IMG/VR virus record: IMGVR_UViG_3300025120_000113
Span: 1-45,840 of that record
Strand: one strand, 5' to 3'
Source: a virus
DNA: 45,840 bases
The notes under the pieces are model-generated. The model saw only the letters and a list, made by a program, of their open reading frames with translations, was not told where the DNA came from and ran no database searches. This document shows positions 391 through 20,101 of the stretch, piece after piece (within the stretch, counting starts at the first letter, position 1; every line of letters begins with the position of its first letter). The position numbers were made by a program, and so were the translations under genes.

Positions 391-3300
391 ATGAGCAGGT
401 CGTATGTGCGAATCATCAAGGCTGATGACGACAAGGATGCTCCTAAAGATACTCGCAAAGAAATGAGCGCGGAGGAAAAGCAAAAACGCGCACTGATGGG
501 TAAAAAACTCATCCGAAGCGCAGGTAGTAAGTTAATCAGCGCCGCGCTAAAAGAAGACAAGCCCGATGTTGAAGACCTATTTAACGAACTATTATACTTG
601 AATAATAAAATGTTTGGCGACTTCCTAGGGCTGACAGAAGATGAAATGTTTGAAGTTAAGAGGGACGAAGAAGGAGATATTGTAAACCCTAGTTTGATGT
701 CTACACCCATGATAACTAAGGAAATTATAAGTTTGATTAATTTTGTTGGTAGCAAAGATAAATTAAAATTCGGGGATAAAGTTGTCGATAATACGCTGCG
801 CGAAGAAATTAGCAAAGAGAAAGAACTCTACCTGCAAGAAAAAGACGCGTCTAAGAAGAATGGCGAAATCGCGATAAACATAGGTACCGGTTTCGTACCT
901 ATATTAGCAGAAGGTTTTGAAAAGCGAAGGCGTAACAAATCGGACAGGGTTGCCGGTATATTCCAAAACCGATTGTTGAATTATATTCAAGGTGATAAGA
1001 CCAAGCACCCGCTTTCGTTCAGTATGCTTGCTACTCGCGACAAAATAGATATGCCCGTTAGGGAGCGTAGGCCTAGTAAGTTAGAAGAAGCAACTGGTAA
1101 GGTCGATGAAAACTTTGCATCTAACTTGGAAAGGCAAGGCGCGGAAGGAAGGAGTGAATTAGGTAGCCGTGATGTTGCGCCTAATGTCACACCCAAAGGT
1201 GTTAAAGTTGTAAACACCCCTAAGAAAATTTTAGAAGAAAGAAGTTCTTTCCCCAAGTTTACTCAAATGTATCAATCCTCTACACCGGGTAAGACCGACA
1301 TAACTAGACGGCGTCAAGATATGAAAGAGAGAAGTAAAGCCGCGGGGGAACTATACAGCGATGTATTTGATGAATTCCAAGATTATAGGCGCGGTGGTAG
1401 AAGTTCTGTCGCTGAACTAAAAAGTACAAGCAATGCAGATATGGCTAAGTGGCAACAACTCATTGAAAACAAAATGAATGACACCATGGAAACTAACCCT
1501 AAGCAAGCGGTGAAAGCAGTTCAACAGGACTTTGATAGTTTTATGAGAATGGCTTTACAAAACCATGGTATAGGTTCTTCCGGTCGTCCTAAAAAGACCG
1601 GTGGTGAAATTCTAGCACCTAAAACAGACAGCATGGTGACACCTGCATTTTATGAAGTCGCTAAAAGAATGGGCGTGAAACTATCGTTACCAAACATAGG
1701 TGACAGACTTATTCAAGATTACTTTAAAGACGGGTCGGGTACCACAGCGCAAAGTAAAGAATTTAGAAATAAGTTAAGAGAAGCGTTAGATGAAGACATG
1801 ATAACAGACGCGCATCACCCTGCTTTGAAAAATGCATTCGGAACTGGCGAAATATTCGACCCCGAAAAGTTTGAGGTTGAGCATCGGCGCGCTACTATGG
1901 AGGGTGGTGTAAGCCCACTCACAAACCTTGAGAGGACAGGTGGTAGCGCAACTGCTTCTCTTAATGAAAAGGCAGGTAGTAAAGATACCGAGGCTAGTGT
2001 TGCCGACCTTAAGCGAAGAACTTATGATAAAACTAACAATGACAATAAAATAAGTGCCGCGCTAAAAGACTTAGAGTTCCGTTTAAAATACGACAAGTTA
2101 GACCCGTTTGTTTATGAAAATATCAAAAATAAAATATTAGCAACAGAAGCAGGTGCGGCGTTGCAGGACTACAACTTCCCCGACGAAGAAATGCCTAAAC
2201 CGGAAGATTTCCCCGAAGGACATCCGTACGCTAAGATGACCTCCGAAGAAATTATGCATCAATCTAAAAAATTGTTTGACCAACTAATAGGTTCGGGGCG
2301 TATAATAAATGACATTAACGATAGATTGACTGAAAATGGTCTTAGCCAAACCGAGATTGAAAAATTAGAATTGTCAACGGAAGATGTCACTAACTTAGCA
2401 GACATACTAAACGCAGGCTCACCTCAAGAATCTCAAAGAGTGTTAGAAACATTCAATGATAAAAATGTCAAAAGATATGAGTTAGCATTTGCTAACGGGG
2501 TAGACCGTGATTATTTAGGTTCTATCAGTAATCAAATAGATAAAACAAAGAAAATGGTTAATGAAGCAGGTATAAATCCTACCGACTTCGCAACTGCTGC
2601 TATGATGTTTTCGCAAAATAATTTTTCCAAAGACTCATACAACAACGCGTTTAATCACTTACTTGCTAGGTCTAAGAAAGGTGGGTCAAACGCCTATGTT
2701 ATGTATCAAGTCATAGCCGCGGCTAAGAAAGCAAATAATGAACGGGCGAATCATATCGCTTATCAAGAAAGCGTTATACATCAAAATGAAAGATTCTTCA
2801 ATCATGGTAAGCATAAACCGCAAGATGATGAAGAAGTAGATGATGAACATAAGCATCATATCATTAGCGAGGCAGAAGATTGCGAAGCCTGTCATTCTAA
2901 ACATTTCAGCACTAGAAGTAGCGAAGAAGCAAAAGCGCAAACACCGGTCGATTCTAGGGATAGTAAAAAGTCAGCATTTGTTAATCGCGATTTATTAGTT
3001 CCAAAAATAGCATTTCAATTTAACGAAGCGACCGGTCAAGAGGATGCCATACCCCTGTTTGATGATAGTAAATTAAGTGTGGCTCAAATATGTCATCACA
3101 TATTTGGAGGTAACAAATCGTTGAAAAAATATCAAGAAGAACTGGCTAGAACTCAAAGAATTTTTGGTTTAGACGACTTTAGAATGAAACGACGGATAGA
3201 GCGTGAAATTCGTGATGCTGTAAAAGACGGTAATCCTAACATTGACAGTGCGATTAAAAAGTATAACTTGAAAACTAAACTTGAGAAAATACAGCCGATA

Positions 3301-6300
3301 GGTGGTGCTAATTTAACCCCTCATCAAAGAGTTGCGTTAGGGCATGTTTTGCCGAATAAATTTCAAGGCGCAGGTCAAAGAGAGAACGCGCGTATTAGAG
3401 GTTTAGTCGGAACTCAAATGTCCGGTCTAGTTGAAGCGTTTAAACTGCTGAAAGATATAAAATCGGGCGAAATTACAGACAGCGATGGTAAAAAAATATC
3501 ACTTAAAGGGATAAGCAACAAAAAAAATGGGAAAGAAAATCGTGCTAAATTGATACAAGGTTTGTATAAAGGAAGTGCTGACGACGCAAAACAAGAAACA
3601 TATTTGAGCGCTCATAACTTACTCGCTAAGTTTATAGAAAATATTGTAGACGAGCATAAAGAAGAAGCAGGTGCTTGGCACGAAGAAAAAGGTCAACACA
3701 TGGTTCATTCAGCAGACCCCGATAATCCTAATCAAAGAATCGAAGGTAAATATCATGCTAGTAAAATTGGTCAAGACGCGCATGACATGTTGACACAAGA
3801 GAGAGATGGTATAAACGACAAGTATGACTCTATTCTTCAAGAAGAAATGGACAGATTAGCGAACTGTCAATCACCTATGGATTTGGCACCTGCCGGTTCA
3901 AATGTCATCAGTATACCTAAGCACATGTTCCAAATGATAGGTTACGCGGATGGTGATGTTATCACTATTACAGGTGATGATGGGACTGAGCATAAAGCGA
4001 AAATCGCTAAAGCCTTCCCGCCTAAATATGATAATCAAGATAAAGCACAACTTAGATTATATCAACCTCTACCTGCTGAGATAAGTAATGGATTTGTTAA
4101 GAACAACGAGTTGGTGAAACCGCGTATATTTAATCAAACGCGATGGTTTGCTAACAGACAGAAAGAAGGTGTAAGTTTAGATAATTTGTCTAAAGAATTG
4201 AATAGAAAAATCAAAGCAAGTAGTGATGATTTGACTGCGTCTAAAAAAGACGCTGATTATACTAAAAGAAGAAATCAAATCGCCTACGGTGCGTTAATGA
4301 CAGCAGGTGCGCAATTATTACCTTTTATCGGAGAAACTGACGAAAATAAAATTTTCGACGCGCTTAATAACATTAGAGAAGACATTTACACAGATAGTGA
4401 AGGTATGCCTGTACCGGATGTTTTTACAGCAGACGGTGAAGGTACTATTGGTAGAAGTTACATATACAGACCCGATAAATATATGCAAGGTCAATTAACA
4501 GGTGTGGGAGGAACAGGTTTGATTGCTGAACACGCTAACATATTGTTACCTATGTTAGATGATATTACAATGATTAACGCTTTGAGAAAAGCGTACAAAA
4601 ACTCACCTTTGACAGAAGAGCAAAAAAATGTAGTGAGAGATTCTGTCGCTCTAAAAAATAATCAAAGCACTCATGTCAAGAGAATACAAAGAAAATTATT
4701 AGGTGACGAGCATCAAGAAGAAGAAAGTAGTGAGAAAGACGCGCCTGTCATCAAACAAGATAAGATTAGCGAGAGTGAATTAAGAAGGTTAGACCGTAAT
4801 AACCACTACCCCAAAGAGTTGTTAGAAAAAATAATGAGTGGCGGGGCTGATGAATTGGTAGAAAATTACATCAAAGGAGGGCCTACTGCTTGCGGAACAT
4901 GTGGTGGTACTTGTCGAGTTAATCGAGAAGAGGCTATCGCGTATCTTCAATCTCATGTAAAAGAACTGAAAAACGCGAATCCTAATAGCCCTGCTATGAG
5001 AAGAGCGGTTGAAGAATTTCTAAGACCGTTTAATCATCAATCGTTTGAGAGTCATCCTAGAAGTGATATGTTAGAACCTCATGAACATTCACAATACTCT
5101 TGCCCAAGTTGTGAAGAACATGACCATCCCGATGTCGGTAGATATTCTAGCGGGCAATGTTCTCATTGTAACGCTAGTGGTAGACGCGACCCTCATGACG
5201 ATAAGCATGTGCAAGAAGGTTACGAGAATGAAGATGGTGAATTCGTACCGGGTAAAATTAGTCACCATATCGAGGGAGGCAGATTGCCTCCTATTGAAGA
5301 CATGATGTCGGCGCAAAAACCTAAATTTAGTTTCTTAGACAAAGACAATCCGTTCGCAGGTATTTTGCCTAAAAATTCATTGGCTATTGATGCGTTCAAA
5401 GAAGGAGCCGCGCGAGGTATGTTCTCACCGTTAGTCACGCCGGAAGACGCTAACGAAATGACAAAAAGATATTTGACAGGTCTAGGCAAATTTGACAAGA
5501 AGAAATTTAAGACATTCCTTCAACAAATAAAAGAGGGTAAAGATGAGTTCGACCCTATGAGTAGTGTGAGAGCAGCAAGTAGAATAGCACTACCGACTGA
5601 TGAAGTAACATTAGAGGCTCGAAGACAGAAGGCGATTAGAGAAGGTAGAGTTGCTCAACCACAACCGGGCATTGACAACATTCAATCCGAGCCAAAAAAG
5701 AGAAAGGAAAATGCAATTTTAGCCGCGCATCATAGAAAACATATTGACCAAATGTTGAACTCATTGATAGAGAATATAGAAACAAACAAAGATATTATCG
5801 GTGAAAGTAATTATAGCAAAGCGGCGGAACTATCTAAACAAATAAGAGAACATGAGCAATTATACTTACATCACGAAGAAGATGAACATGAGTTGGTTGA
5901 TTTGTTTCATCAACTGCAAAATATTGCTCACATACCTTTCACGACCGGTAGTAAAAAAGTCGCGGCAGGAGTTAACGAAAGTGGTGAACAAATTTATGAC
6001 ACTGTCGAAAACAAACCTGCGCCGTTTACTTACGATGCAGAAAGCGGAGAACTTAGACCCCCGCATAAAAGAAGGTCTTTTCAAAACCTAACATACAAAG
6101 ACGGTATGTGGCAAACCGCTAGAGAAATAGAACAAGGTTTGCATAGAGTGGGTGCAACACATGGTCCTGTATTAGATGAGAATGAAATGCTAAAAATGTA
6201 TGCACACTCTCCGGCCTTGCTAAAAATTCATGAGAAATTTAGAAATCAAGGAGATTACGATAAAAATGATGAAGAGAAGTTACTCTACATCTTAAACGGT

Positions 6301-7542
6301 GATAAGGCTAGAGAAATAAAAGGCATAGACAAACCGTTAGATACAAGAAAAGTCAAAGACTTCATGCACCCCGACTTCAAAGCATTGATGAAAGAGTTTG
6401 GTATAGAAAAGGATGAACAGTTCATACCTTTTGGTCAAGAAGGTAATATGACATCGTTTGAAGGTGTCGCGTTTAATAAAGAGTTTTTGCGCAAAATAGA
6501 GAAAGAAGGGTTGAGGTTGAAAGACCTTAAGACATATCTAGGTATTGAAAACACAGAAAAAAGTTTTTACAATAAAGACGAAGTTAAACGCCTCGATAAA
6601 GATTACAACGACAATTTGAATCGTGCGAGCAAAGACCAATTTAAAAAATATATTAAACTACTTGCTGTGAAGGATTTGTTAAGTAAAGATGAAGACACTA
6701 TGTCATACGAAAACCCCGGACTTTTGGCAAAAATAAAATCAAAGGGGTTAGATATTAATAATGTGAACCCTAGTACGATTCTTCAATCTTTCTTTGGCGA
6801 CGCTACATTTATGGATTCTGTGTTGGAATCAGCCATGCAAGACATTGGCATAAGCGGTAGTGATACTAATTACGAAAGTATGGGTGAGTTTGATGAAGAT
6901 ATTGGTATGAACAGCAAGATAAGAATGCGAAACGGTCAAGTGTTAAGCGCGAAAAATTACAAGCAGACTGCGCTTGCTGCGGCTACTGTTAACAACAAGC
7001 CTACGCCTCTACCACAAAAGCCGGAAGAGATGGTACAATACGCGACTCAATTCTCTAGAGCAAATAGTTTAGAATCAAAAGTAGCAGAAAACATGCAGCA
7101 AAGAGCCGCCTTTGAACACTTCCCCGGATATATGTATAGAAATATGGCTAACAAAGCAATAACAGATTTAGGATATACTAACATGAACGATGCGATAAAG
7201 GACTTTGAAGCAGGTAAATTACCTCAACTTGCTGATATATTAGGAGGTAACTATGAACTTGCGCAAGAATCATCACCACTTTGGCAAAATCAATCTACTG
7301 AGGACAGATTACATTACAATAAAGTGCAAGGCGCGTTACCTAGGGACTCTCCCGACAGACGCGGCGAATCGACTGGTCAAGAAGTGGATATTAATGAAAG
7401 AGAACCGCAACCACCCACTCAACAACAACCACCTGCGCCTGTTGGAAATGTTTTCGGCGGCACTTTTGAACCGCGACCAAACTTCGCTACATACGAAACA
7501 ACCCAACAGCAAAACCCTTTCACCGGAAGAAATTATCAATAA
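391..7542 (+). CDS. giant virion-module protein of unknown function (2383 aa)
   Basis: I do not recognise a family for the full length. The product is very large, hydrophilic and rich in Lys, Asp, Glu and Asn, with no signal peptide or membrane segment. Metal-binding-type clusters are visible: His-rich residues followed by CEAC at about 830, C-G-T-C-G-G-T-C at about 1500, and C-P-S-C plus C-S-H-C-N-A-S-G at about 1570-1595. The last two resemble DnaJ-type zinc knuckles split by an insert. Around residues 1170-1230 a stretch (ISIPKHMFQ... GDVITI) weakly resembles an Ufd1/Cdc48-N double-psi barrel. The C-terminus is Pro/Gln-rich. The ATG at 391 lacks a clear ribosome binding site. Its place in the head/packaging gene set suggests an internal virion or ejected protein, by inference only. 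The N-terminus (M-S-R-S-Y-V-R) echoes that of the major capsid protein (M-A-R-N-Y-V-R), which may be chance. Confidence 0.85.
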   Translation: MSRSYVRIIKADDDKDAPKDTRKEMSAEEKQKRALMGKKLIRSAGSKLISAALKEDKPDVEDLFNELLYLNNKMFGDFLGLTEDEMFEVKRDEEGDIVNPSLMSTPMITKEIISLINFVGSKDKLKFGDKVVDNTLREEISKEKELYLQEKDASKKNGEIAINIGTGFVPILAEGFEKRRRNKSDRVAGIFQNRLLNYIQGDKTKHPLSFSMLATRDKIDMPVRERRPSKLEEATGKVDENFASNLERQGAEGRSELGSRDVAPNVTPKGVKVVNTPKKILEERSSFPKFTQMYQSSTPGKTDITRRRQDMKERSKAAGELYSDVFDEFQDYRRGGRSSVAELKSTSNADMAKWQQLIENKMNDTMETNPKQAVKAVQQDFDSFMRMALQNHGIGSSGRPKKTGGEILAPKTDSMVTPAFYEVAKRMGVKLSLPNIGDRLIQDYFKDGSGTTAQSKEFRNKLREALDEDMITDAHHPALKNAFGTGEIFDPEKFEVEHRRATMEGGVSPLTNLERTGGSATASLNEKAGSKDTEASVADLKRRTYDKTNNDNKISAALKDLEFRLKYDKLDPFVYENIKNKILATEAGAALQDYNFPDEEMPKPEDFPEGHPYAKMTSEEIMHQSKKLFDQLIGSGRIINDINDRLTENGLSQTEIEKLELSTEDVTNLADILNAGSPQESQRVLETFNDKNVKRYELAFANGVDRDYLGSISNQIDKTKKMVNEAGINPTDFATAAMMFSQNNFSKDSYNNAFNHLLARSKKGGSNAYVMYQVIAAAKKANNERANHIAYQESVIHQNERFFNHGKHKPQDDEEVDDEHKHHIISEAEDCEACHSKHFSTRSSEEAKAQTPVDSRDSKKSAFVNRDLLVPKIAFQFNEATGQEDAIPLFDDSKLSVAQICHHIFGGNKSLKKYQEELARTQRIFGLDDFRMKRRIEREIRDAVKDGNPNIDSAIKKYNLKTKLEKIQPIGGANLTPHQRVALGHVLPNKFQGAGQRENARIRGLVGTQMSGLVEAFKLLKDIKSGEITDSDGKKISLKGISNKKNGKENRAKLIQGLYKGSADDAKQETYLSAHNLLAKFIENIVDEHKEEAGAWHEEKGQHMVHSADPDNPNQRIEGKYHASKIGQDAHDMLTQERDGINDKYDSILQEEMDRLANCQSPMDLAPAGSNVISIPKHMFQMIGYADGDVITITGDDGTEHKAKIAKAFPPKYDNQDKAQLRLYQPLPAEISNGFVKNNELVKPRIFNQTRWFANRQKEGVSLDNLSKELNRKIKASSDDLTASKKDADYTKRRNQIAYGALMTAGAQLLPFIGETDENKIFDALNNIREDIYTDSEGMPVPDVFTADGEGTIGRSYIYRPDKYMQGQLTGVGGTGLIAEHANILLPMLDDITMINALRKAYKNSPLTEEQKNVVRDSVALKNNQSTHVKRIQRKLLGDEHQEEESSEKDAPVIKQDKISESELRRLDRNNHYPKELLEKIMSGGADELVENYIKGGPTACGTCGGTCRVNREEAIAYLQSHVKELKNANPNSPAMRRAVEEFLRPFNHQSFESHPRSDMLEPHEHSQYSCPSCEEHDHPDVGRYSSGQCSHCNASGRRDPHDDKHVQEGYENEDGEFVPGKISHHIEGGRLPPIEDMMSAQKPKFSFLDKDNPFAGILPKNSLAIDAFKEGAARGMFSPLVTPEDANEMTKRYLTGLGKFDKKKFKTFLQQIKEGKDEFDPMSSVRAASRIALPTDEVTLEARRQKAIREGRVAQPQPGIDNIQSEPKKRKENAILAAHHRKHIDQMLNSLIENIETNKDIIGESNYSKAAELSKQIREHEQLYLHHEEDEHELVDLFHQLQNIAHIPFTTGSKKVAAGVNESGEQIYDTVENKPAPFTYDAESGELRPPHKRRSFQNLTYKDGMWQTAREIEQGLHRVGATHGPVLDENEMLKMYAHSPALLKIHEKFRNQGDYDKNDEEKLLYILNGDKAREIKGIDKPLDTRKVKDFMHPDFKALMKEFGIEKDEQFIPFGQEGNMTSFEGVAFNKEFLRKIEKEGLRLKDLKTYLGIENTEKSFYNKDEVKRLDKDYNDNLNRASKDQFKKYIKLLAVKDLLSKDEDTMSYENPGLLAKIKSKGLDINNVNPSTILQSFFGDATFMDSVLESAMQDIGISGSDTNYESMGEFDEDIGMNSKIRMRNGQVLSAKNYKQTALAAATVNNKPTPLPQKPEEMVQYATQFSRANSLESKVAENMQQRAAFEHFPGYMYRNMANKAITDLGYTNMNDAIKDFEAGKLPQLADILGGNYELAQESSPLWQNQSTEDRLHYNKVQGALPRDSPDRRGESTGQEVDINEREPQPPTQQQPPAPVGNVFGGTFEPRPNFATYETTQQQNPFTGRNYQ

Positions 7543-7625
7543 TCTCATTGTTGTATTAGAATAATAATGATAATCTCTCTATTGTTATAATAATAATATG
7601 ATAATATTGAGAAAAAGGTGAATCA

Positions 7626-7677: not shown

Positions 7678-8184
7678 GTGCAATCAAGCCCCAACAAAAA
7701 TAGTGACGAATTAAGAATTTTAGGACTAATTTCATTTGTAAGTATACTCGTCGGATGCTCTATTGCAGTATTTGACGCGAGAATGTGGTTATATGATGAT
7801 GAAACATATACAAACGCGATAACATATACCATGGGAGCGTTTACATTACAGGGTATGGCGTATTTTATTTACAAAATGCTAGCACAAGACAGTATGGACC
7901 AAAAAGCGTTGCTGTCTAACATGCAAAGAAGCATGTCAAGACAAATGCAAGCGCAACAAATGCGATTTGCTCAAGCGCAAATGGAAATGGAAATCAAAAA
8001 GCAAGAGGTTACTTTCGCAAAACAGATGGAAGATTTAGAAAAAGACCCCGAAGTGCAACAATATCTTGGTTTGATGGGTTTAGATGCAGAACAACAAACC
8101 CCTCAACACAAAGCAGAAGAGAAAGAATCTTTGCACTTAGGTAGAAAGCGCAACACAGACGGCACATACGCTAAAGGAGAATGA
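7678..8184 (+). CDS. two-helix membrane protein with cytoplasmic coiled coil
   Basis: Not recognised as a known family. After a short polar N-terminus there are two hydrophobic segments: roughly residues 15-35 (ILGLISFVSILVGCSIAV) and roughly residues 50-70 (ITYTMGAF... MAYFIYKML). A long Met/Gln/Glu-rich segment follows that should form a coiled coil, then a charged C-terminus. The GTG at 7678 is preferred because GGAGGT lies eight bases before it. An in-frame ATG at 7654 and GTG at 7618 are alternatives. It is the first gene of a small-membrane-protein and GTPase cluster and may anchor a complex at a membrane. Confidence 0.7.
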   Translation: MQSSPNKNSDELRILGLISFVSILVGCSIAVFDARMWLYDDETYTNAITYTMGAFTLQGMAYFIYKMLAQDSMDQKALLSNMQRSMSRQMQAQQMRFAQAQMEMEIKKQEVTFAKQMEDLEKDPEVQQYLGLMGLDAEQQTPQHKAEEKESLHLGRKRNTDGTYAKGE

Positions 8185-8190
8185 TTTACT

Positions 8191-8427
8191 ATGGGTTGGT
8201 TGTTCAAAACCCCAAGTGACGATGCTACGGAAGCAACCCTACGCGCTTTACATACTCAAAACACACTTGATAACTACTATGAGAGAGGCAGGGCTTTACT
8301 TCTGTGCGTTATAGTTGGTTTTCTAACTGCTTTTGGCGTATCTTATTTTGAATTACAAACAGAAACTAGCATTTGGGAAAACACAGTAGAGTGGTTTTTC
8401 AACATAATAATAAGTTGGGTGAATTAA
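8191..8427 (+). CDS. small single-pass membrane protein
   Basis: 78 residues with one clear hydrophobic helix (about 36-56, LLLCVIVGFLTAFGVSYF) and a second amphipathic, Trp-rich segment at the C-terminus. The N-terminus M-G-W-L-F-K-T-P resembles the M-V-W-P-F-S-N-P start of the gene at 10057 and fits the wider W-x-x-L/F-K pattern in this window. The start is preceded by GGAG. The stop codon overlaps the next start (TAATG), so translation is probably coupled to the GTPase gene. Function unknown. Confidence 0.7.
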   Translation: MGWLFKTPSDDATEATLRALHTQNTLDNYYERGRALLLCVIVGFLTAFGVSYFELQTETSIWENTVEWFFNIIISWVN

Positions 8428-9149
8428 TGGTTGCGACAATGGCCGGTAGCGCACTTATGGGCGCGGTTGTTTACGGAAAAGAACTCTATAACTTCCTTAA
8501 ACCGCGCAGAATAGGAGTTTATGGTCCGACAATGGTAGGTAAAACAACACTTGACCAATTTATGCGCACTCCGGGTGAAATGGATAACATAGAAGATAGA
8601 ACATACCATTCACGCAAGTTACTTTCTAAAGGATATGTTCTTCCTAAAGCAAGTCGTAAGCGTATTCGTTGGCAAGGTGAGAAAAGAGTAGTTCATTCTG
8701 CTGATATTGGCGGCCAACAGCGTTTTTGGAACTTGTGGATAGACGATATGGTTGAAAGACAGGTAGAAATTGCCATATTTATGACAGATACGCGTGTGTT
8801 GAAAGGAAAAGGGGCTGATGTTATAGACGCTATCGGCGGATTTGAGTTTTTAGTAGACGCTTTGATAGAAAAAAGATGGAAATATCGTTCATTGTACTCA
8901 AGAATGCGTGGGAAACGCTATGCTCCTAAGCAAATATGGCTTGTAGCGAATAAAGCAGATGAATGGTGGGACGATAAAGCCAATATGTTATGGCAATCTA
9001 ACAGACTGCGAGAGCATAATATATTTGATACCCACAGACCTGCCATGCGAAGACTGCAAAAGGCAGGTATTCCGTGTCGTGTTAGTATGATGGCGACTAA
9101 AATAGGTTGGAATGTTGAAAAAACAATGATAGAGATGTTAACTTGGTGA
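8427..9149 (+). CDS. Arf/Ras-like small GTPase
   Basis: 240 residues. The nucleotide-binding motifs are in canonical order: P-loop G-P-T-M-V-G-K-T at 33-40, G3 D-I-G-G-Q at 93-97, and G4 N-K-A-D at 175-178. D-x-G-G-Q followed by Q-R-F-W is typical of the Arf/SR-beta branch rather than of bacterial Era-type GTPases. The first 25 residues are mildly hydrophobic and may contact a membrane. ATG 8427 is chosen over the upstream in-frame ATG at 8373 because GGTGA lies just before it and it overlaps the previous stop. Neighbours on both sides are small membrane proteins, so a membrane-recruited switch is a reasonable inference. Such GTPases are very unusual in tailed viruses. Substrate and partners are unknown. 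Confidence 0.85.
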   Translation: MVATMAGSALMGAVVYGKELYNFLKPRRIGVYGPTMVGKTTLDQFMRTPGEMDNIEDRTYHSRKLLSKGYVLPKASRKRIRWQGEKRVVHSADIGGQQRFWNLWIDDMVERQVEIAIFMTDTRVLKGKGADVIDAIGGFEFLVDALIEKRWKYRSLYSRMRGKRYAPKQIWLVANKADEWWDDKANMLWQSNRLREHNIFDTHRPAMRRLQKAGIPCRVSMMATKIGWNVEKTMIEMLTW

Positions 9150-9153
9150 AAAA

Positions 9154-10047
9154 ATGTTAGGAAATACACAGCAAAATGAATTATTACGATTAGCCTCTCA
9201 AACACAGATGAGTTATGCTCAAATGCAGCAACAAGCCATAGCACAGAACGCTATGAGTGATGTAAAGAGTCATATTGAGGTGCCACAAGTCAATTTTTAC
9301 CCTTCAAGGCACCCAAATCCCAAAAAAGCGCGTAGAAAAGACATAAAACAGGCGTATAAACTGCTAAAACCGACAAAAAGAAGCATTTTTTCGCCTAGAA
9401 GATGGCTTTTTGGGGGTAAATATAGGTATAATACTAACACTATGAGGTGCGTTATAGACGGTGCAGACATAGATTATCTACTTAGAATGGCCGGAAATAT
9501 CTACGAACAGATAATAGATGAAGAAACAGGGCAATCTTTATGGGATATTTACTTCAAAAATCCCGTTACAGGAGAGGTAGAAGCCTTCGTAGCGCGTGAA
9601 AATGTTACAAGTGGGCGTAAAATGCGTGGTACATACTGCCCGGAACATCTACATTTGTATCATTTGCTGATAAAATGGGAGAAAGAAGAAGAAAAGGAAG
9701 AAGAGGCCAATACAGGCACATTGAGGGCTAAACTAAAAAAAGGGGTATCTACGGTAGCAGTACCAATAAGTAGCCTCAAAAGGAAGGATAATACACCACC
9801 TACACTTATAAAATACGAACCATTCTTTGAGATGTTGAAAAAAGACAACATACCCGTCACTCATTTTGCTAATTCCGCAACAGGAACCAACGATTTAGTC
9901 ATGATAGTGTTCGATATGCGTCAATTTCAAGCAGGTAACAACTCAAGAATGCTTTTTGACGCACTGGCTATGCATCAATTACAGCAAAACGCGGTTCAAT
10001 CTCAACCTTTACCTTTACCGACACAATCAAATGATGGGAGCGTATGA
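9154..10047 (+). CDS. unknown protein of the GTPase module (297 aa)
   Basis: Family not recognised. The N-terminus is Gln/Met-rich and likely coiled or disordered. Next comes a basic stretch (about 60-90, many Lys/Arg). A compact region (about 95-175) contains I-D-Y-L-L-R-M-A-G-N and Y-C-P-E-H-L-H, and a Glu-rich insert (about 172-185) separates it from a C-terminal domain ending in a Gln/Pro-rich tail. No membrane helix is evident. A GGTGA box lies just before the ATG, four bases after the GTPase stop. It may be a cytoplasmic partner of the GTPase, by position only. Confidence 0.7.
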   Translation: MLGNTQQNELLRLASQTQMSYAQMQQQAIAQNAMSDVKSHIEVPQVNFYPSRHPNPKKARRKDIKQAYKLLKPTKRSIFSPRRWLFGGKYRYNTNTMRCVIDGADIDYLLRMAGNIYEQIIDEETGQSLWDIYFKNPVTGEVEAFVARENVTSGRKMRGTYCPEHLHLYHLLIKWEKEEEKEEEANTGTLRAKLKKGVSTVAVPISSLKRKDNTPPTLIKYEPFFEMLKKDNIPVTHFANSATGTNDLVMIVFDMRQFQAGNNSRMLFDALAMHQLQQNAVQSQPLPLPTQSNDGSV

Positions 10048-10056
10048 GGTGGTATT

Positions 10057-10629
10057 ATGGTGTGGCCTTTTAGCAACCCTCAACAACCCGCACAAACAGG
10101 TGCAATGAATCTTGGATTAGGGGGAGGGCAGCAACAAGTCCCCATGCAAAACCAACAATTCGGCGGTCAACAACAATATGGTTTCCAATATCAAGCACCT
10201 CCAAGTGAAATGGAAATATTATCAGCCATGATAACGACCAATCCTATGATTGACAAATGGCTTTCCGATAATAATGGAGAGAATATGGGTATGGTTGTTT
10301 CACTTTTGAGTAGTCTTGTCGCGGTATCAGTTAATACAATGCTCGCTAATGCGCGTTTGGTAGAAGATGGTGATGGGTATAAATTTGATTTCAGCGGAGT
10401 GCAAGGATTACCCACTGTCGACAGCGTCACAATGTCCCAAACTCAACTTCTTAACAAAGCCTCGAACAATGTTCAGCAGAAAACAATGCAATTTCAACAG
10501 ATGGTTCAACTCGCTAATCAAGGAGTTATGCAAGGCATGCTGAATGATGCTATGGCAGACCCCGGCATGATGCAAAATGTTGGTGGCGGTCTTGGTTCGT
10601 TGGTGCGTGGATTAGCAGGCGGTCGTTAA
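10057..10629 (+). CDS. Gln/Gly-rich protein with hydrophobic core segment
   Basis: 190 residues. The N-terminus M-V-W-P-F-S-N-P echoes that of the gene at 8191. It is followed by a Gly/Gln-rich low-complexity stretch (about 15-50), a hydrophobic segment at about 85-105 (MGMVVSLLSSLVAVSVN) and a Met/Gln-rich helical C-terminus ending in Gly repeats. GAGGTGG precedes the ATG. Function unknown. It could be a membrane-associated or virion protein of the same module. Confidence 0.65.
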   Translation: MVWPFSNPQQPAQTGAMNLGLGGGQQQVPMQNQQFGGQQQYGFQYQAPPSEMEILSAMITTNPMIDKWLSDNNGENMGMVVSLLSSLVAVSVNTMLANARLVEDGDGYKFDFSGVQGLPTVDSVTMSQTQLLNKASNNVQQKTMQFQQMVQLANQGVMQGMLNDAMADPGMMQNVGGGLGSLVRGLAGGR

Positions 10630-10630
10630 T

Positions 10631-10867
10631 ATGGGTAGTATAGACTCTTTCTATACCGCGATGAGCGATATGACTAACTTGAAAAAGTCAGTTATCGTTG
10701 ACATGATTATGGTACAAGTTATCAGTTTGACGCTAGGGTGTTTCTTAATACTGGTTTTTTCCGGTCCTAAAATGTCTTCTACTGAATTAAGTTGGATTAT
10801 AGGCGCGCTATTCATTACTTTCAGCGGTGCCGGTATCGTCTATCGAAGACTCGCTAATCAAGGTTGA
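10631..10867 (+). CDS. small two-helix membrane protein
   Basis: 78 residues with two hydrophobic segments, about 21-43 (VDMIMVQVISLTLGCFLILVF) and 54-70 (WIIGALFITFSGAGIVY), a charged N-terminus and a short basic C-terminus. It begins two bases after the previous stop. Its last 60 bases overlap the convergent minus-strand gene. Holin-like size and topology are noted, but nothing specific supports a lysis role. Confidence 0.65.
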   Translation: MGSIDSFYTAMSDMTNLKKSVIVDMIMVQVISLTLGCFLILVFSGPKMSSTELSWIIGALFITFSGAGIVYRRLANQG

Positions 10868-11116: not shown

Positions 11117-11153
11117 AGAAAGACTCTTTTGCTAACACTACTTGGTCTTTGCT

Positions 11154-11822
11154 ATGGCGGAGCGTATTGTTCGTGCATCTTGTAAATTTTGTCAAGACTC
11201 CGACCGCGATGGTTTAGAAGAAATGCTAACTCTTGGAATAATTACGCCAAAAGATTTGGATAAACAAAAAGGATGGCGCGAAGGTACTGCTGACAGACAT
11301 TTTCGTAATCACATGGGTGAATATCACATGGGCAGCAATAGTGAGTGTGGTTTTTGCGTATCTTCTAAAAGAGAGAATTTGGAAATGGCTTACTTCAACG
11401 GTTCCATGACAAGTCAACAGATAGCAGACGATTTACAGATACCCGAATCTAATGTTTATCACCATATCAAACATCATCTAAAACCTGTTGTGCAAAAAGC
11501 CGCGGCGGACATCATTCTTGTCGAGGCGGGTAATGAAATGCAAAGCCTTCGTGACAATCTTTCGCGAATCAACGGCGAATTAAGTCATTTCTTAGACGAC
11601 GCTGACCGCAATGACCCTCAATATGTTCGCAACATTGTAACGCTTCACAAAGAAGTACGCGAATCAATCAAAGATATGATGAGGGTTCAAGAAAGAGCCG
11701 CGGGTAATGTTACAGAAAATATGACAGCACAGACTATAAACATCCTCAAAGTTGAATTAGCAAAGGAAAGTCCCGAAGTGTGGGCTAGACTGCGCGGAAA
11801 ATTGCTAGGAGATGATGCTTGA
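11154..11822 (+). CDS. probable terminase small subunit (tandem zinc/HTH protein)
   Basis: 222 residues. Two similar modules are visible. The first has C-K-F-C (10-13) and ends H-F-R-N-H (49-53). The second has C-G-F-C (65-68), a helix-turn-helix (about 85-109, with Q-Q-I-A-D-D-L-Q-I-P) and H-H-I-K-H-H. The C-terminal half (about 120-215) is helical and coiled-coil-like, as in terminase small subunits that oligomerise. The role would be recognition of viral DNA and delivery to the large terminase. ATG 11154 is preferred over an upstream TTG at 11142. It sits upstream of terL in the same co-directional run, though five genes apart. A transcription regulator is the main alternative. Confidence 0.55.
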   Translation: MAERIVRASCKFCQDSDRDGLEEMLTLGIITPKDLDKQKGWREGTADRHFRNHMGEYHMGSNSECGFCVSSKRENLEMAYFNGSMTSQQIADDLQIPESNVYHHIKHHLKPVVQKAAADIILVEAGNEMQSLRDNLSRINGELSHFLDDADRNDPQYVRNIVTLHKEVRESIKDMMRVQERAAGNVTENMTAQTINILKVELAKESPEVWARLRGKLLGDDA

Positions 11823-13087
11823 TGGTTGGTGGCCCCGAAGGAAGTACCGCAGGTTTGCGTTTTAATCCGCGACAAAGTGCGGAAGAATTACAAGAAGATT
11901 CTAGCGTAGGTAGAGAAGACTCCGAAGAGCGAGCAAAGCACGATGCGAAAAAGCGTGAAAAGCAAGAAAAACGCGCTAAGATGATGCAAGGTCTGCAACA
12001 CATGAAAATCAAAGTACCTCAAAAGCATGAGGAAGACGAAGAAGATAGTGATATGAAAAGGCAGGCCGAAGCAGGTCAAATGTCCGGTCAAGTAGGTCAA
12101 AACGAAGCCAATGCCGGTGCTAATCCAAAAGGAGGGGGTATGAATATTCTACTTTCTACCACATCGTTTATTGACGATGCTTTTGACATGATTCGTAAAA
12201 AGCGTGGTGAACCTAAGTTCGACGACGAAAAGCCGAAGAAAACAACGACAGTAGAAACTCAATTGGCTAGAAGGCGTGCTAAGAAAGGTAAACGCGGTAA
12301 GAAAACTGTAACTACTGAAAAATTAAAAACAAGTAGAAGTGGTAAGAAAAAGCGTTTGAAAGCAGGTAAAGTGAGAACTCCGGCTCAAATGACTATATCC
12401 ACAGCAGGTCAAGCGCCTTACAGAACATTCGGTTTGATGGGAAGTAGAAGACCTTCTCCGACCGCTCCTATAACATTAACAACATCGACAGGCCGAAGTC
12501 AAGCAAGGGCTAGTTATCAAAACCCTAGAGATAAATTAGGACTAGATGAAAGACAGGCTATGCGTCAATCACAACCAACTCAAGATGTTACGCCGCCAAT
12601 ACCAACAGTAGTAGAAAGTGCAAGAATAGCCCGTACACCAAAAGGTCTTAAAAGAAAAAAACCACACTCAAAAGCAATAAGACAACCAAGAACTACCCAA
12701 ACTCCGGGAGGCGCGGAACACAGCAAAGACATCGCTCTCGGAGGCGGTGCATCCGCCATGGCCGCGGGTGGTATTGGTTCAACAGACGCTATACTTGCAT
12801 CCGAAGAGTTCTTGCATAAGCGCGCACAGAAAGTAAAGGTAGGAATATCACCCCGTGACCGCATTGAGTATAGACATCTAGTAGATAGATTGAATCATTT
12901 ACTTAGAAGACTGACGCGCAAAGAGGATAAGTCTATGCAAGGTGTTGACGGTAAATCATCGCCTAATTCATCGGGTGGATTGACATCTAACCCAACAGGT
13001 GCTACTGAAACTGACCCCGATGATGACGCAACTCGATGGGGTACTCACGGTTACGATTTATATGTTAGAAGGGGTGGTATATCATGA
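11822..13087 (+). CDS. basic low-complexity virion-type protein with internal start
   Basis: 421 residues, no recognised domain. Residues 1-105 are charged and Gln-rich. The central part is strongly basic (runs of K-K-G-K-R-G-K-K and R-R-R-A-K-K), consistent with nucleic-acid binding. The C-terminal part includes an Ala/Gly segment and a helical stretch with R-L-N-H-L-L-R-R-L. The start is ATG 11822 (TGATG overlap with the previous stop) or TTG 11819, both served by AGGAG. A second, stronger ribosome binding site occurs in frame at 12131. Likely a DNA-associated head protein, by composition and position. Confidence 0.65.
   Translation: MVGGPEGSTAGLRFNPRQSAEELQEDSSVGREDSEERAKHDAKKREKQEKRAKMMQGLQHMKIKVPQKHEEDEEDSDMKRQAEAGQMSGQVGQNEANAGANPKGGGMNILLSTTSFIDDAFDMIRKKRGEPKFDDEKPKKTTTVETQLARRRAKKGKRGKKTVTTEKLKTSRSGKKKRLKAGKVRTPAQMTISTAGQAPYRTFGLMGSRRPSPTAPITLTTSTGRSQARASYQNPRDKLGLDERQAMRQSQPTQDVTPPIPTVVESARIARTPKGLKRKKPHSKAIRQPRTTQTPGGAEHSKDIALGGGASAMAAGGIGSTDAILASEEFLHKRAQKVKVGISPRDRIEYRHLVDRLNHLLRRLTRKEDKSMQGVDGKSSPNSSGGLTSNPTGATETDPDDDATRWGTHGYDLYVRRGGIS
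12140..13087 (+). CDS. possible nested product from an internal start
   Basis: An in-frame ATG at 12140 is preceded within three bases by AAAGGAGGGGG, the strongest purine-rich ribosome binding site seen near here. The predicted start M-N-I-L-L-S-T-T-S-F reads like a genuine N-terminus and precedes the basic core. It would give a 315-residue form lacking the charged leader. Because Gly-Gly-Gly codons could generate the purine run by chance, this is suggestive rather than proven. Confidence 0.4.
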   Translation: MNILLSTTSFIDDAFDMIRKKRGEPKFDDEKPKKTTTVETQLARRRAKKGKRGKKTVTTEKLKTSRSGKKKRLKAGKVRTPAQMTISTAGQAPYRTFGLMGSRRPSPTAPITLTTSTGRSQARASYQNPRDKLGLDERQAMRQSQPTQDVTPPIPTVVESARIARTPKGLKRKKPHSKAIRQPRTTQTPGGAEHSKDIALGGGASAMAAGGIGSTDAILASEEFLHKRAQKVKVGISPRDRIEYRHLVDRLNHLLRRLTRKEDKSMQGVDGKSSPNSSGGLTSNPTGATETDPDDDATRWGTHGYDLYVRRGGIS

Positions 13088-13686
13088 ATTGGTGGATATT
13101 TTTAAAAGCAGGCAACAAAGAACAAGAAAGAATGTTTGATGAGATACGAGATAATTTTGCAGATAGGGCAATCGACGCCAACACTCCTTTTGGAGATGAG
13201 CGAGAAGAGAGGTTGAGAAGTATGGCTATGAACATTCTACCTAGACAAGAAAATGTCGCGAGAAGAAATATTAAATTAAATTATGACAAACCCGAATATA
13301 ATCGTTATGGCGCTATGCACCGAACTCCGTTCAACGAAGAGGGAGTAAAAGGCTCTACATTTGATGAACAAGCAGGTAGTGAGCAACCAACTCTTAGAGG
13401 GAATATAAGGCGTCTTATTGACCACGACAAACAAGGAGAAACATTTGAAGGTAAAAATAAATATGATGCTCGCAATCCTAGTTACAGACCCGGCGGTCTT
13501 GAAGATTTACCGGAGAAATTGAAAGAGATGCAAGCAGACGCTAAAAAGAAACAACAGGAAAGGTACAAGGGTCGACAAGAACAGCGTCAACGAATGACAC
13601 CTGCTGAAAAAAGAGAGTATCGAGGCGATGACCGTGGCCCGCGACCGTTACCAAAAGTAGTGGAAAGAAGTGATGATTTTCGTTAG
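13084..13686 (+). CDS. charged small protein with WxFLK N-terminus
   Basis: 200 residues. M-N-W-W-I-F-L-K-A-G-N at the N-terminus belongs to the recurrent W-x-x-L-x-K group in this window. The rest is hydrophilic, rich in Arg, Glu, Asp and Gln, and probably largely disordered with helical stretches near the C-terminus (E-K-L-K-E-M-Q-A-D-A-K-K). The start overlaps the previous stop (ATGA). No known domain. Likely an accessory head or packaging protein because it lies between the terminase genes. Confidence 0.65.
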   Translation: MNWWIFLKAGNKEQERMFDEIRDNFADRAIDANTPFGDEREERLRSMAMNILPRQENVARRNIKLNYDKPEYNRYGAMHRTPFNEEGVKGSTFDEQAGSEQPTLRGNIRRLIDHDKQGETFEGKNKYDARNPSYRPGGLEDLPEKLKEMQADAKKKQQERYKGRQEQRQRMTPAEKREYRGDDRGPRPLPKVVERSDDFR

Positions 13687-13703
13687 AGATGTGAGTTGAT
13701 TAA

Positions 13704-15518
13704 ATGAGTGACTTAATCATAAAAGGTAAAGGCGTCTACTATCGCGACGCTGATGGTGTTATGCACCCAATGTCTTTCCCACCGGAAGACTCCCCACATG
13801 ATAAAATATCACATTTTTACATCAATTCAATGACAGGTAATCCGTTTGAAGAGTTAGATGCTCAACACATAACCAAGTGGCCGATGAGTAGAGCGGCTGA
13901 AATAATGGCTAAAGAGATAATGGAACAAGGTCGAAACGGAGAGTATGTCAAAGATTTCGGTAGGGCTTTGATACACGCTAAAGAAGATATGAATGAAGCA
14001 ACTAAAAGATTTAACGCGACGAAAGACGAGTCGGGGGATTTAAGTCAAAAGTTACCAATACCGTTTCCTAGGGATAGAGGTTATCAATTGCATCCCGAAT
14101 ATATGAGTAATCATTATGGTTCTCATCAATCAAGAAGAATCCCTTCTAGTGACAGAAAAGTTAGGGATGACGAAGGCAGGTTAGTTAATAATCATCCTAA
14201 TAATAAACCTCATCAAACATTAGGTTTGCATCTTGAATCTGCCGCGCTACACATGGCTAATGAGTTGAATGATGTTAACAAAGAAAAAGGTTACAAAAGT
14301 ACAATAGGTGCTAAGCAGAATGTTATAGAACCTCAACAAATTACAGGAGGGGTTACAAGAAGATACTCTTCAAACGAGCGCGACCCTACTTCTAAAGAGA
14401 ATACAGTTTTCCCCTCTCATTACGCAGATGCTCATGCACAGACAGCCGCATACGGTCAAATAAAACCCGCAGATATTATTTCAGTATTACCAAGCGATTT
14501 CTTCGTCCCTTCTTCTTCGGGTAACATGTCGACAGAAAACATGAACAAATTTATCCGTATGGGTTACGACCAACCCACGGCAAGAAAAATGGCACGCGCG
14601 CCTGTTAACCAACTGATGTATGGTCGCGGTAGTGATGGTTCGCAAACAGGTTTGAGGATTGTCATGAACAACATGGAATCTATTTTAGGCATCAAAGAAA
14701 ACCCCGATGTCAAAAATATATTCACTAGGCATCAAAGTCATTTCGCGCCTTTAGTTCGAGGCGGTGATAGAGGTAGGAACAAAGCGGCTATTGAAATAAT
14801 GGCTATGCTAAAAACAGCCGAAGAGATGGGTATAAGCATGGATTCTCTAAATTCTTACCCCGCGGCTCCAAGTAGTGTGATGGACGGTTACAAAGAAGTT
14901 GCATCTTTAGAAGGTGGTAAACAACTCAACTTAGCCGATTTAGGTAACGCTGACTCACACCATGAGATGCGCGGTAAATTCAATACAGACTACGACCACT
15001 TACACGATTCTTTCCCGCCGCATCTTTCTAGCGGGACTTTTGATGTAAGCGAGTTTGAAGATTCTCCACCTGTTCGACCACCGGAAGAAGAGTTAACTGT
15101 TGAGCCGCCTGCTGAAACAACTCAAAGACCTTCTGCGATAGACCCGCTCGCTTCACTCGGTGGTTCAGCGACGGCAGGTTATAGCGGCTTTGCCGCGCCT
15201 ACTGCTAGTGGCTTTAGTGGTTTCAGTGGGTTTGACCCGCGTATACAAATGTCAAACGATGACCCTATGGGCATCATCGCAAATATCATGGAGAGGGTGC
15301 AACTTCATGAAGCAGGAGGTTCGTTGATAGTCAAATACGACCCGCTAAACAAGCACGATATGGAAAAACTCGCAGATAAAGTTGGTATGACAAGTGTTGA
15401 TGTAAGGGCTGTCGCGATGTCACTCGGAGATTGGAGTGTTGTCGCGAAATCTTTTAACACTACACATGATGTGGTGAGCATCATCAAGACTTCTTGCGGA
15501 GGTGCAATAAATGGTTGA
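13704..15518 (+). CDS. unknown head/packaging-region protein (604 aa)
   Basis: The N-terminus (M-S-D-L-I-I-K-G-K-G-V-Y-Y-R-D) looks like a small beta unit. A His/Asn-rich hydrophilic middle follows, then a Pro/Glu and Gly/Ser/Phe-rich linker (about 450-515, repeated S-G-F). The compact C-terminal domain (about 518-604) is helical, with R-V-Q-L-H-E-A-G-G and D-K-V-G-M-T-S-V-D-V-R-A-V-A, resembling a helix-turn-helix or tail-chaperone-like bundle. There is no membrane segment and no recognised family. The start follows a GTTGA box at a short distance, and the 3' end overlaps the next gene by eight bases. Confidence 0.65.
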   Translation: MSDLIIKGKGVYYRDADGVMHPMSFPPEDSPHDKISHFYINSMTGNPFEELDAQHITKWPMSRAAEIMAKEIMEQGRNGEYVKDFGRALIHAKEDMNEATKRFNATKDESGDLSQKLPIPFPRDRGYQLHPEYMSNHYGSHQSRRIPSSDRKVRDDEGRLVNNHPNNKPHQTLGLHLESAALHMANELNDVNKEKGYKSTIGAKQNVIEPQQITGGVTRRYSSNERDPTSKENTVFPSHYADAHAQTAAYGQIKPADIISVLPSDFFVPSSSGNMSTENMNKFIRMGYDQPTARKMARAPVNQLMYGRGSDGSQTGLRIVMNNMESILGIKENPDVKNIFTRHQSHFAPLVRGGDRGRNKAAIEIMAMLKTAEEMGISMDSLNSYPAAPSSVMDGYKEVASLEGGKQLNLADLGNADSHHEMRGKFNTDYDHLHDSFPPHLSSGTFDVSEFEDSPPVRPPEEELTVEPPAETTQRPSAIDPLASLGGSATAGYSGFAAPTASGFSGFSGFDPRIQMSNDDPMGIIANIMERVQLHEAGGSLIVKYDPLNKHDMEKLADKVGMTSVDVRAVAMSLGDWSVVAKSFNTTHDVVSIIKTSCGGAING

Positions 15519-17248: not shown

Positions 17249-18649
17249 GTGCAAGCGATTTCCCTCGAAGCCATTGAAGAAATAGACTTTGAAGTAGCGA
17301 AGCGCGACTTCAAATTCTTCTTTGAGCAGATATTAGGGTTTCAACTTTCACATCATCACGAAAGATGGTACAACAACTTAGAACAGCGCAAACGATACTG
17401 TGTCAAAGCAGCGCGTGACCATGGTAAATCGACTCTATTCCTTGGCTACATGCTATGGAAGACAGCATTCAACCCTAAGACAAAGGCCGTACTAATCTCG
17501 CACAGCCTACATCAGTCCATACATCACATGCGTACACTTAATGATTTGATTGACGGTGTACCGTTTCTTGCTAAAATGAAAAAAGCCGATTCATGGTCTA
17601 AAACATTTTTTGGTTTTAGTAACGGTTCTAACATTAGCGCGAAGTCTGTTGGTGGTGCTATTCGTGGTATACACCCCGACCTTATTCTATGCGACGACAT
17701 TCTGTGGGGAACAACTGACACAGAACTTGCTCGCGTCGCTTCATGGTTTTACGAAGTTCTTGTCCCGACACTCCACCACACATCTAAACTAATGATAGTC
17801 GGGACACCATTCACTCCAACTGACCTTTACACAGAACTTGAAAGTCGGGACGGTTATCTTGTTGAAACATACCCTGCTATCAACGCGCAGGGAGTTGCGC
17901 TATGGCCGGAGCGGTGGGATTTAGATTCACTAGATGCGCGTCGTGCTGATATGCCTGCGATTGCATTTGCTAGAGAATATCTTTGCGAACCAATGGACGA
18001 TGTATCTAGTTTATTCCCTTCAACAGTATTACAAGCCGCTAAAGATAATACTCTTAAATTGATTAATCGCGAAACAGGTGACCCGGACGACCAATACTTT
18101 ATCGGTTGGGACCCTGCTATTTCTAGCGACCGAGCGGCTGACTACACTGTTATGGTTGTACTTCGTCGCCCATCAACTAATCCCGAACTGCTTGAATTAG
18201 TTCATGCAGTTCGTCGTAAAAATATGGATTTCCGCACGCAAATTACGGAGATACAACGACTTAACGCTAAGTTTAACCCCGATGTGATTGAACTTGAAGC
18301 GAACAACTTTCAGCGTGTCTTCGCTACTGAACTACGCGCAGACACAGACCTTCCTATCAAGACATTTATTTCCACACGCCAACGCCGTGAGTCACTTCTT
18401 ATGGGTTTGGTATTGCGCTTTGAGAACGAGCAAATGCGATTGCCTTGGGGCGACGACCGTTCGCGAACAATGATGAGTGAATTAGAACGCGAACTAATGA
18501 TGTTCGGTATGTCGAAAAAAGGTAAGTTGGACAGCATTGGTCGCCATGACGATTTTGCTATCGCTCTCGCATTGGCTCATTGGGCTACCACGGAGTTCCG
18601 TGAACGAATCGTGGACTTAGATGAAATAATGGAGGGGTTGTTAGATTGA
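17249..18649 (+). CDS. terL: terminase large subunit
   Basis: 466 residues, the usual length. It is the ATP-driven packaging motor and headful nuclease, acting at the portal vertex. The ATPase domain shows the Walker A loop A-R-D-H-G-K-S-T at 55-62, Walker B D-L-I-L-C-D-D at 144-150 and a coupling V-G-T-P-F soon after. The RNase H-like nuclease has G-W-D-P-A-I-S-S-D (about 286-294), I-E-L-E-A-N-N (about 347) and G-R-H-D-D-F-A (about 430), giving the expected acidic triad. The GTG at 17249 is chosen because AGGTGA lies four bases before it. The stop overlaps the next TTG start. Identification is firm from motif order; subfamily and packaging mode are not determined. Confidence 0.95.
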   Translation: MQAISLEAIEEIDFEVAKRDFKFFFEQILGFQLSHHHERWYNNLEQRKRYCVKAARDHGKSTLFLGYMLWKTAFNPKTKAVLISHSLHQSIHHMRTLNDLIDGVPFLAKMKKADSWSKTFFGFSNGSNISAKSVGGAIRGIHPDLILCDDILWGTTDTELARVASWFYEVLVPTLHHTSKLMIVGTPFTPTDLYTELESRDGYLVETYPAINAQGVALWPERWDLDSLDARRADMPAIAFAREYLCEPMDDVSSLFPSTVLQAAKDNTLKLINRETGDPDDQYFIGWDPAISSDRAADYTVMVVLRRPSTNPELLELVHAVRRKNMDFRTQITEIQRLNAKFNPDVIELEANNFQRVFATELRADTDLPIKTFISTRQRRESLLMGLVLRFENEQMRLPWGDDRSRTMMSELERELMMFGMSKKGKLDSIGRHDDFAIALALAHWATTEFRERIVDLDEIMEGLLD

Positions 18650-19148: not shown

Positions 19149-19309
19149 AACTCAAAAAAGACAAATGCTGTTGTGGTGGAACAAAGAAAACACCCTGCGT
19201 TTGCATGGTTCAAGGGAATCAATGTTCTGCTAAATCTCCTAAATGTCCATGCTACGCTTTGATGGATAAACAAAAAACTACTTTGAAAAAGATGGTGCGC
19301 GTGGTATGA
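19145..19309 (+). CDS. 54-aa Cys-rich peptide
   Basis: A short gene with overlapping start (ATGA) and stop (ATGA) codons. The product has nine cysteines (C-C-C-G-G, C-V-C, C, C-P-C) and a basic C-terminus, suggesting one or two zinc sites. No family recognised. Its reality is supported by the tight four-base overlaps at both ends and by Cys-rich neighbours on both sides. Confidence 0.65.
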   Translation: MKLKKDKCCCGGTKKTPCVCMVQGNQCSAKSPKCPCYALMDKQKTTLKKMVRVV

Positions 19310-19984: not shown

Positions 19985-20101
19985 ATGGATAAGTATTGCG
20001 GGTGGTGTTACGCGACAGATGACCCGCAACCATTTGGATTTTGTAAAAAATGTTGGATTAAAGCAGGCAAACCGGAGGCGATGAAAGTTGACGATAATTG
20101 A
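19985..20101 (+). CDS. 38-aa zinc-knuckle peptide
   Basis: A 38-residue product with C-G-W-C and C-K-K-C-W, a minimal four-Cys zinc site. It starts one base after the previous stop and overlaps the next start by 14 bases. Upstream in-frame codons from 19907 lie inside the previous gene and are not needed. Function unknown. Short length makes this moderately certain. Confidence 0.55.
   Translation: MDKYCGWCYATDDPQPFGFCKKCWIKAGKPEAMKVDDN

What the first reader, a model, noticed from the sequence alone, without database searches (positions are those of the whole stretch)
8427..9149. Arf-like GTPase encoded by a tailed virus
The P-loop, D-x-G-G-Q and N-K-x-D motifs are intact and in order, with the Q-R-F-W extension typical of Arf/SR-beta. 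Small Ras-superfamily GTPases are rarely, if ever, part of the tailed-virus virion gene set. Flanking small membrane proteins suggest a membrane-recruited switch, perhaps in egress, membrane remodelling or host-envelope interaction (inference).
Basis: partly seen in the sequence, partly recalled or inferred. Interest (0 to 1): 0.75.

Follow-up and report, generated by a model that had tools for sequence, protein, structure and literature searches.

The report
Conserved Arf-like GTPase in magroviruses
A very common group of ocean viruses that probably infect archaea all seem to carry the same switch protein, related to those that shape membranes inside our own cells, fixed in a block with small membrane proteins; such switches were not found in any other tailed virus we searched, and what it does is still unproven.

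Summary
Window 8427-9149 encodes a 240-aa small GTPase. P-loop (GxxxxGKTT), DxxG and NKxD are invariant in 159-160 of 160 viral homologues, dN/dS is about 0.05, and the predicted fold's best PDB matches are all Ras-superfamily GTPases. It leans Arf-like: Arf is the commonest Pfam match in relatives, and Asgard Arf-like proteins outrank nearly all Rab/Ras-like ones. However, every Pfam score is weak and the tree puts the viral family on its own very long stem. It is best called a divergent Arf-like family, so far seen only in viruses, not an Arf. The virus is magrovirus-like (Magrovirales, probable hosts Poseidoniales). The GTPase is core: 34 of 34 contigs reached independently through the capsid gene with at least 25 kb upstream carry it, and five shorter contigs lacking it are truncated. 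A nine-gene block (membrane proteins, GTPase, candidate zinc protein, others) keeps its order in 152 of 160 contigs. It is absent from halovirus HCTV-1, which shares capsid and portal. Best mechanism (inferred): a membrane-recruited GTP switch in virus exit or membrane remodelling, analogous to archaeal ArvABC vesiculation.

The parts
8427..9149 (+). Arf-like small GTPase, 240 aa; N-terminal helix (residues 2-24), P-loop 33-41, invariant T59 (candidate switch-1 Thr), DxGGQ 93-97, L103-W104, NKAD 175-178, AT 223-224
7678..8184 (+). Membrane protein with M/Q-rich coiled-coil-like tail (ORF opens at 7618; GTG at 7678 follows an AGGAGG); one strong hydrophobic segment and a weaker second one
   Evidence: family in 157 of 160 contigs
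8191..8427 (+). 78-aa protein with one strong hydrophobic segment; its stop overlaps the GTPase start
   Evidence: 159 of 160 contigs
9154..10047 (+). 297-aa soluble partner candidate; invariant C99, C162, H165, H167 (possible Zn site); residues about 51-180 mostly pLDDT above 90; no PDB fold match
   Evidence: 160 of 160 contigs
10057..10629 (+). 190-aa Q/M-rich protein with one hydrophobic stretch
   Evidence: 160 of 160 contigs
10631..10867 (+). 78-aa protein with two hydrophobic segments
   Evidence: 160 of 160 contigs
11142..11822 (+). 226-aa protein with weak helix-turn-helix similarity, end of the best-conserved block
   Evidence: 160 of 160 contigs
11819..15518 (+). Further genes downstream (11819, 13084, 13704); 11819 and 13704 families kept in order, 13084 found in only one relative by tblastn
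391..7542 (+). Giant 2383-aa protein upstream, fast evolving, no family match; ORFs of about 2.2-2.4 kaa also lie upstream in a subset of relatives
17249..18649 (+). Terminase large subunit
21485..23326 (+). Portal protein, nearest to Druskaviridae
31720..32868 (+). Major capsid protein, nearest to Druskaviridae (about 35%)

Best explanation
A magrovirus-encoded Arf-like GTP switch that works at the host membrane together with the proteins of its own conserved block. Shown: it is a small GTPase by motifs and predicted fold, under strong purifying selection, core to this virus clade, and in fixed order with three small membrane proteins, a candidate zinc protein and two other proteins. Inferred: GTP loading recruits it to the membrane through its N-terminal helix and/or the neighbouring membrane proteins; the 9154 protein acts as regulator or effector; the assembly then deforms or opens the host envelope late in infection for virion exit. 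The model is the archaeal vesiculating operon ArvA-ArvB-ArvC. Exit or membrane remodelling is the version I think most likely.
For: GTPase identity. Arf lean: Pfam Arf matched by 12 of 37 relatives, best E 0.006; hhalign against Asgard Arf-like groups 96% and 91%, Rab/Ras-like 73%, an AAA protein 29%; in hmmsearch the Asgard Arf-like proteins L343, L345, L346 outrank all Rab/Ras-like ones, and L169-L171 all but L354. Core gene: 34 of 34 contigs with at least 25 kb upstream of the capsid gene; five lacking contigs are truncated in or just after the module. Block order kept in 152 of 160 contigs. Membrane proteins flank it. Virus-specific module: absent from HCTV-1 and vir519, where capsid and portal relatives are found. 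Analogue: ArvA is needed for normal vesicle formation in Haloferax volcanii, is closest to Arf in Pfam, has an N-terminal amphipathic helix, and has a zinc-ribbon neighbour ArvC proposed as a GAP (PMC10927574).
Against: No experiment of any kind. The N-terminal helix is only weakly hydrophobic and weakly amphipathic (median 17-aa hydropathy 1.2, moment 0.30), so membrane binding is uncertain. None of the neighbours scanned matches ArvB or ArvC families (DUF2073, DUF2072) or any known lysis or holin family. The 9154 fold matches nothing solved. The catalytic Gln is replaced in about a quarter of members. No expression timing is known.
Confidence: 0.4

Rival explanations
1. Assembly or virion role: the GTPase and its membrane partners form a complex at the membrane or portal that helps head assembly, packaging or genome ejection, and may be in the virion.
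For: The block lies between a giant protein and the terminase on the structural strand, and is as universal as the capsid gene in contigs long enough to tell.
Against: A related halovirus with the same capsid and portal lineages lacks the whole block, so it is not needed for this type of head. Three membrane proteins are unusual for head assembly (general knowledge).
Confidence: 0.25
2. Host take-over switch: the viral GTPase imitates or competes with a host small GTPase (ArvA-like vesiculation, SR-beta-like targeting, or polarity control), blocking vesicles, redirecting secretion or excluding other viruses.
For: Arf-like lean; an archaeal Arf-related GTPase controls vesiculation (PMC10927574); Gln97 replacements in 42 of 160 members could give a slow or locked switch.
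Against: The fixed block of virus-only membrane partners suggests a self-contained machine. The Poseidoniales host GTPases could not be examined here.
Confidence: 0.22
3. Signalling or gene-control switch: with the HTH-like 11142 protein it times a step of the infection cycle, membrane proteins serving as sensors.
For: 11142 has weak HTH similarity and is kept in the block in 160 of 160 contigs.
Against: HTH matches are below curated cut-offs; nothing links it to the GTPase beyond order.
Confidence: 0.1
4. The protein has lost GTPase activity and is a nucleotide-binding structural protein.
For: The catalytic Gln varies; low-confidence P-loop region in the model.
Against: P-loop, D93, N-K-x-D and T59 are invariant or nearly so in 160 members with dN/dS about 0.05.
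Confidence: 0.03

Closest known systems
Arf/Arl family of the Ras superfamily (PF00025), including Asgard Arf-like proteins
   Same: GKTT P-loop, DxGGQ, following L-W, ANKxD, AT in G5, N-terminal helix before the G domain (features of Arf partly from general knowledge); high profile scores among the Ras families compared
   Different: 240 aa against about 180; extra segments between T59 and the second strand, before G4 and between G4 and G5; no match of the window protein to the Arf model; tree shows a separate clade with a stem of 3.67 changes per site
ArvA-ArvB-ArvC archaeal vesiculating GTPase operon (PMC10927574)
   Same: Arf-related small GTPase with N-terminal helix in a conserved operon, with a candidate zinc protein nearby
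   Different: Neighbours are not DUF2073/DUF2072; the viral block holds several membrane proteins; no functional data; direct sequence comparison with ArvA was not done
Ras-family GTPases of giant viruses of eukaryotes
   Same: Virus-encoded small GTPase; best matches in the viral fold library
   Different: Those carry names of eukaryotic Rab, Ran or Ras proteins; the magrovirus family is a core gene of a tailed virus of archaea with no close cellular relative found
Magrovirales (Aoguangviridae and relatives)
   Same: 90-118 kb, family B DNA polymerase, chaperonin, Druskaviridae-related capsid and portal
   Different: No mention of a GTPase in the held papers that name magroviruses; exemplar genomes and three key papers were not available here

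Membership tests
Ras-superfamily small GTPase | P-loop GxxxxGK[ST], DxxG, NKxD in order and conserved | tested here: met
   159-160 of 160 homologues
Ras-superfamily small GTPase | G-domain fold | tested here: met
   971 PDB matches at E<=0.001, top 50 all small GTPases, probability 1.00; TM-scores moderate (0.38-0.49 on query length) and model pLDDT 72
Ras-superfamily small GTPase | GTP binding and hydrolysis | not testable with these tools
   needs biochemistry
Arf family (PF00025) | score over the curated Pfam cut-off | tested here: not met
   no match for the window protein; best relative E 0.006
Arf family (PF00025) | Arf-type residues: GKTT, DxGGQ, LW, ANKxD, AT | tested here: met
   invariant or near-invariant except Gln97 (Q in 118 of 160) and A for G95 in 10; alignment with Asgard Arf-like proteins
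Arf family (PF00025) | tree position inside Arf | tested here: inconclusive
   viral clade 100/99 on a long stem, joined only to another long branch
Arf family (PF00025) | N-terminal amphipathic membrane helix | tested here: inconclusive
   helix 2-24 predicted at low to moderate pLDDT (block means 53-71); moment 0.30
ArvABC system | ArvB (DUF2073) and ArvC (DUF2072) next to the GTPase | tested here: not met
   no such Pfam match in the neighbouring proteins scanned
Magrovirales | family B DNA polymerase, chaperonin, 90-110 kb genome, Druskaviridae-related capsid | tested here: met
   tested on long relatives of the window virus: PolB in 14 of 18, chaperonin in 25 of 28; the window itself is a 45.8 kb record without these genes

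The most novel reading that the evidence does not exclude
Tailed viruses of abundant marine archaea exit or remodel the cell with their own Arf-type GTPase machine, a GTP-driven membrane module unlike any known phage lysis or archaeal virus exit system.
Probability: 0.3. Interest if true: 0.9.

Novelty: new variant of a known kind. Interest (0 to 1): 0.68.

Why it matters
[quoted passage not shown] A core Arf-like GTPase with fixed membrane partners gives a concrete, testable candidate, and adds a virus branch to a GTPase group whose archaeal roots matter for the origin of eukaryotic membrane traffic.

Tried and rejected
Library searches with the window protein alone (Pfam, PHROGs, NCBIfam, PDB sequences, phage records, PADLOC) gave nothing significant; only the family alignment and the fold worked. 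P-loop ATPase: rejected. Recent capture from a sequenced host: no close cellular relative; three hits in bacterial or archaeal bins look like misbinned virus contigs. Patchy presence: rejected, since the lacking contigs checked are truncated. Homologue in HCTV-1: none. Fold of the 9154 protein: no match. A weak PHROG match (phrog_29250, 12 of 37 members, best E 0.0009; residues 171-223 in the window protein) was not followed up. Published magrovirus exemplar genomes (OR863078, PP497039, ON649702) and the other Poseidoniales virus PP497040 are not in the collections.

Full report
OBSERVATION. The ORF 8427-9149 encodes 240 aa with P-loop, DxGGQ and NKxD motifs in order. It sits tightly in a run of genes on one strand: the upstream stop overlaps its start by one base and the next start lies 4 bases after its stop. 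A protein-guided scan of IMG/VR found 143 relatives, and two family-based scans found 204 and 198. In 160 aligned homologues the P-loop residues occur in 159 and D93, G96, N175, K176 and D178 in all 160; the Gln of DxGGQ is Q in 118, E in 33, D in 7 and H in 2. Median dN/dS is 0.052 over 429 pairs. This is a real gene under strong constraint.

IDENTITY. The window protein matches no Pfam, PHROG or NCBIfam model and no PDB sequence meaningfully. Relatives match Pfam Arf most often (12 of 37, best E 0.006), then Roc, best E 0.0024. The AlphaFold2 model (pLDDT 72, pTM 0.73) matches 971 PDB chains at E<=0.001; the top 50 are all small GTPases. Top viral-library matches are Ras-family GTPases of giant viruses. 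Profile-profile comparison gives 96% and 91% with Asgard Arf-like groups, 73% with Rab/Ras-like, 29% with an AAA protein; the small groups used make these rough. In an hmmsearch of about 35 Asgard GTPases, the Arf-like proteins L343, L345 and L346 outrank every Rab/Ras-like one, and L169-L171 all but L354; the top hit L341 is itself best matched by Pfam Arf. A tree gives the viral family its own clade (100/99) on a stem of 3.67 changes per site; its join to L341 is a meeting of long branches and is not trusted. Conclusion: a divergent Arf-like family; Arf membership not shown.

THE VIRUS. Capsid and portal are nearest to Druskaviridae (about 35% and 31%). Long relatives are 90-118 kb, with family B polymerase in 14 of 18 and chaperonin in 25 of 28. 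This fits Magrovirales, viruses predicted to infect Poseidoniales (PMC10768690, PMC12999244, PMC5332604). Host assignment is by resemblance only.

CORE STATUS. To avoid selecting on the GTPase, I started from the capsid gene of the window and of a distant relative. Of contigs with at least 25 kb upstream, 15 of 15 and 19 of 19 carry the GTPase (upstream lengths worked out by hand). Five contigs without it were examined: four end inside the module (at 9154, 10057, 11142 and 11142) and one ends just before the 13704 family. So no true absence was seen among them. One copy (G059) has an in-frame TGA.

MODULE. Families of 7618, 8191, the GTPase, 9154, 10057, 10631, 11142, 11819 and 13704 occur in this order in 152 of 160 GTPase-bearing contigs; the other eight each lack only one or two of the outer families. 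7618/7678, 8191 and 10631 have strong hydrophobic segments. 9154 has invariant C99, C162, H165 and H167 and a confident but unmatched core; weak matches of 17 of 48 members to a cysteine-cluster model fit a zinc site but do not prove it. Profile searches find none of the nine families in halovirus HCTV-1 or in vir519, whose capsid and portal are found.

MECHANISM. No direct evidence exists. The closest precedent is ArvA, an Arf-related GTPase needed for normal extracellular vesicle formation in Haloferax volcanii, with ArvB and the zinc-ribbon ArvC in its operon (PMC10927574). The viral block shares the layout (GTPase with N-terminal helix, soluble neighbours, one a zinc candidate) but not the neighbour families, and adds membrane proteins. 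I therefore propose a virus-owned membrane switch, most likely in exit or membrane remodelling (0.4), with assembly/virion (0.25) and host take-over (0.22) as rivals. Steps shown: GTPase family, constraint, core status, fixed block, hydrophobic neighbours. Steps inferred: GTP cycling, membrane recruitment, partnership with 9154, timing and exit role.

NOVELTY AND LIMITS. No held paper that names magroviruses mentions a GTPase, but Philosof 2017, Zhou 2023 and Prabhu 2025 were not available or not held, so an earlier gene-table annotation cannot be excluded. Searches of 50,697 phage records with four GTPase queries found nothing; the Arf query did find one Legionella plasmid GTPase, so tblastn can detect distant members but with limited reach. 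Rarity in tailed viruses is therefore likely, not proven.

Noticed in passing
16647-16733: ARAGORN reports an 87-base tRNA-Glu on the minus strand inside a coding ORF; Rfam gives no match at gathering threshold, so probably false.
   Followed up: partly
17249-18649: Terminase large subunit is nearest to Bacteroides phages (27%) and shows no detectable similarity to HCTV-1's terminase, although capsid and portal are halovirus-like: a mosaic head module.
   Followed up: partly
391-7542 and 24417-30278: Two giant proteins (2383 and 1953 aa) with no family match; the first evolves fast, with ORFs of similar size upstream in a subset of relatives.
   Followed up: partly
19306-19983: Protein with matches to DUF6321 (E 1e-13) and DUF5872 (E 2e-10), between terminase and portal.
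   Followed up: no
20088-21488: 466-aa protein with an HNH endonuclease match between terminase and portal.
   Followed up: no
L082, L083, L084: Contigs encoding this viral GTPase family sit in bins labelled Cytophagaceae, Maricaulis and Asgard archaeon, probably misbinned virus contigs.
   Followed up: partly
window residue Q97 (8715-8717) and relatives: The catalytic Gln of DxGGQ is replaced by E, D or H in 42 of 160 family members, a natural series for testing switch speed.
   Followed up: partly
L341: An Asgard GTPase best matched by Pfam Arf, with DCPGD instead of DxGGQ, is the best cellular profile match to the viral family; its role is unknown.
   Followed up: partly
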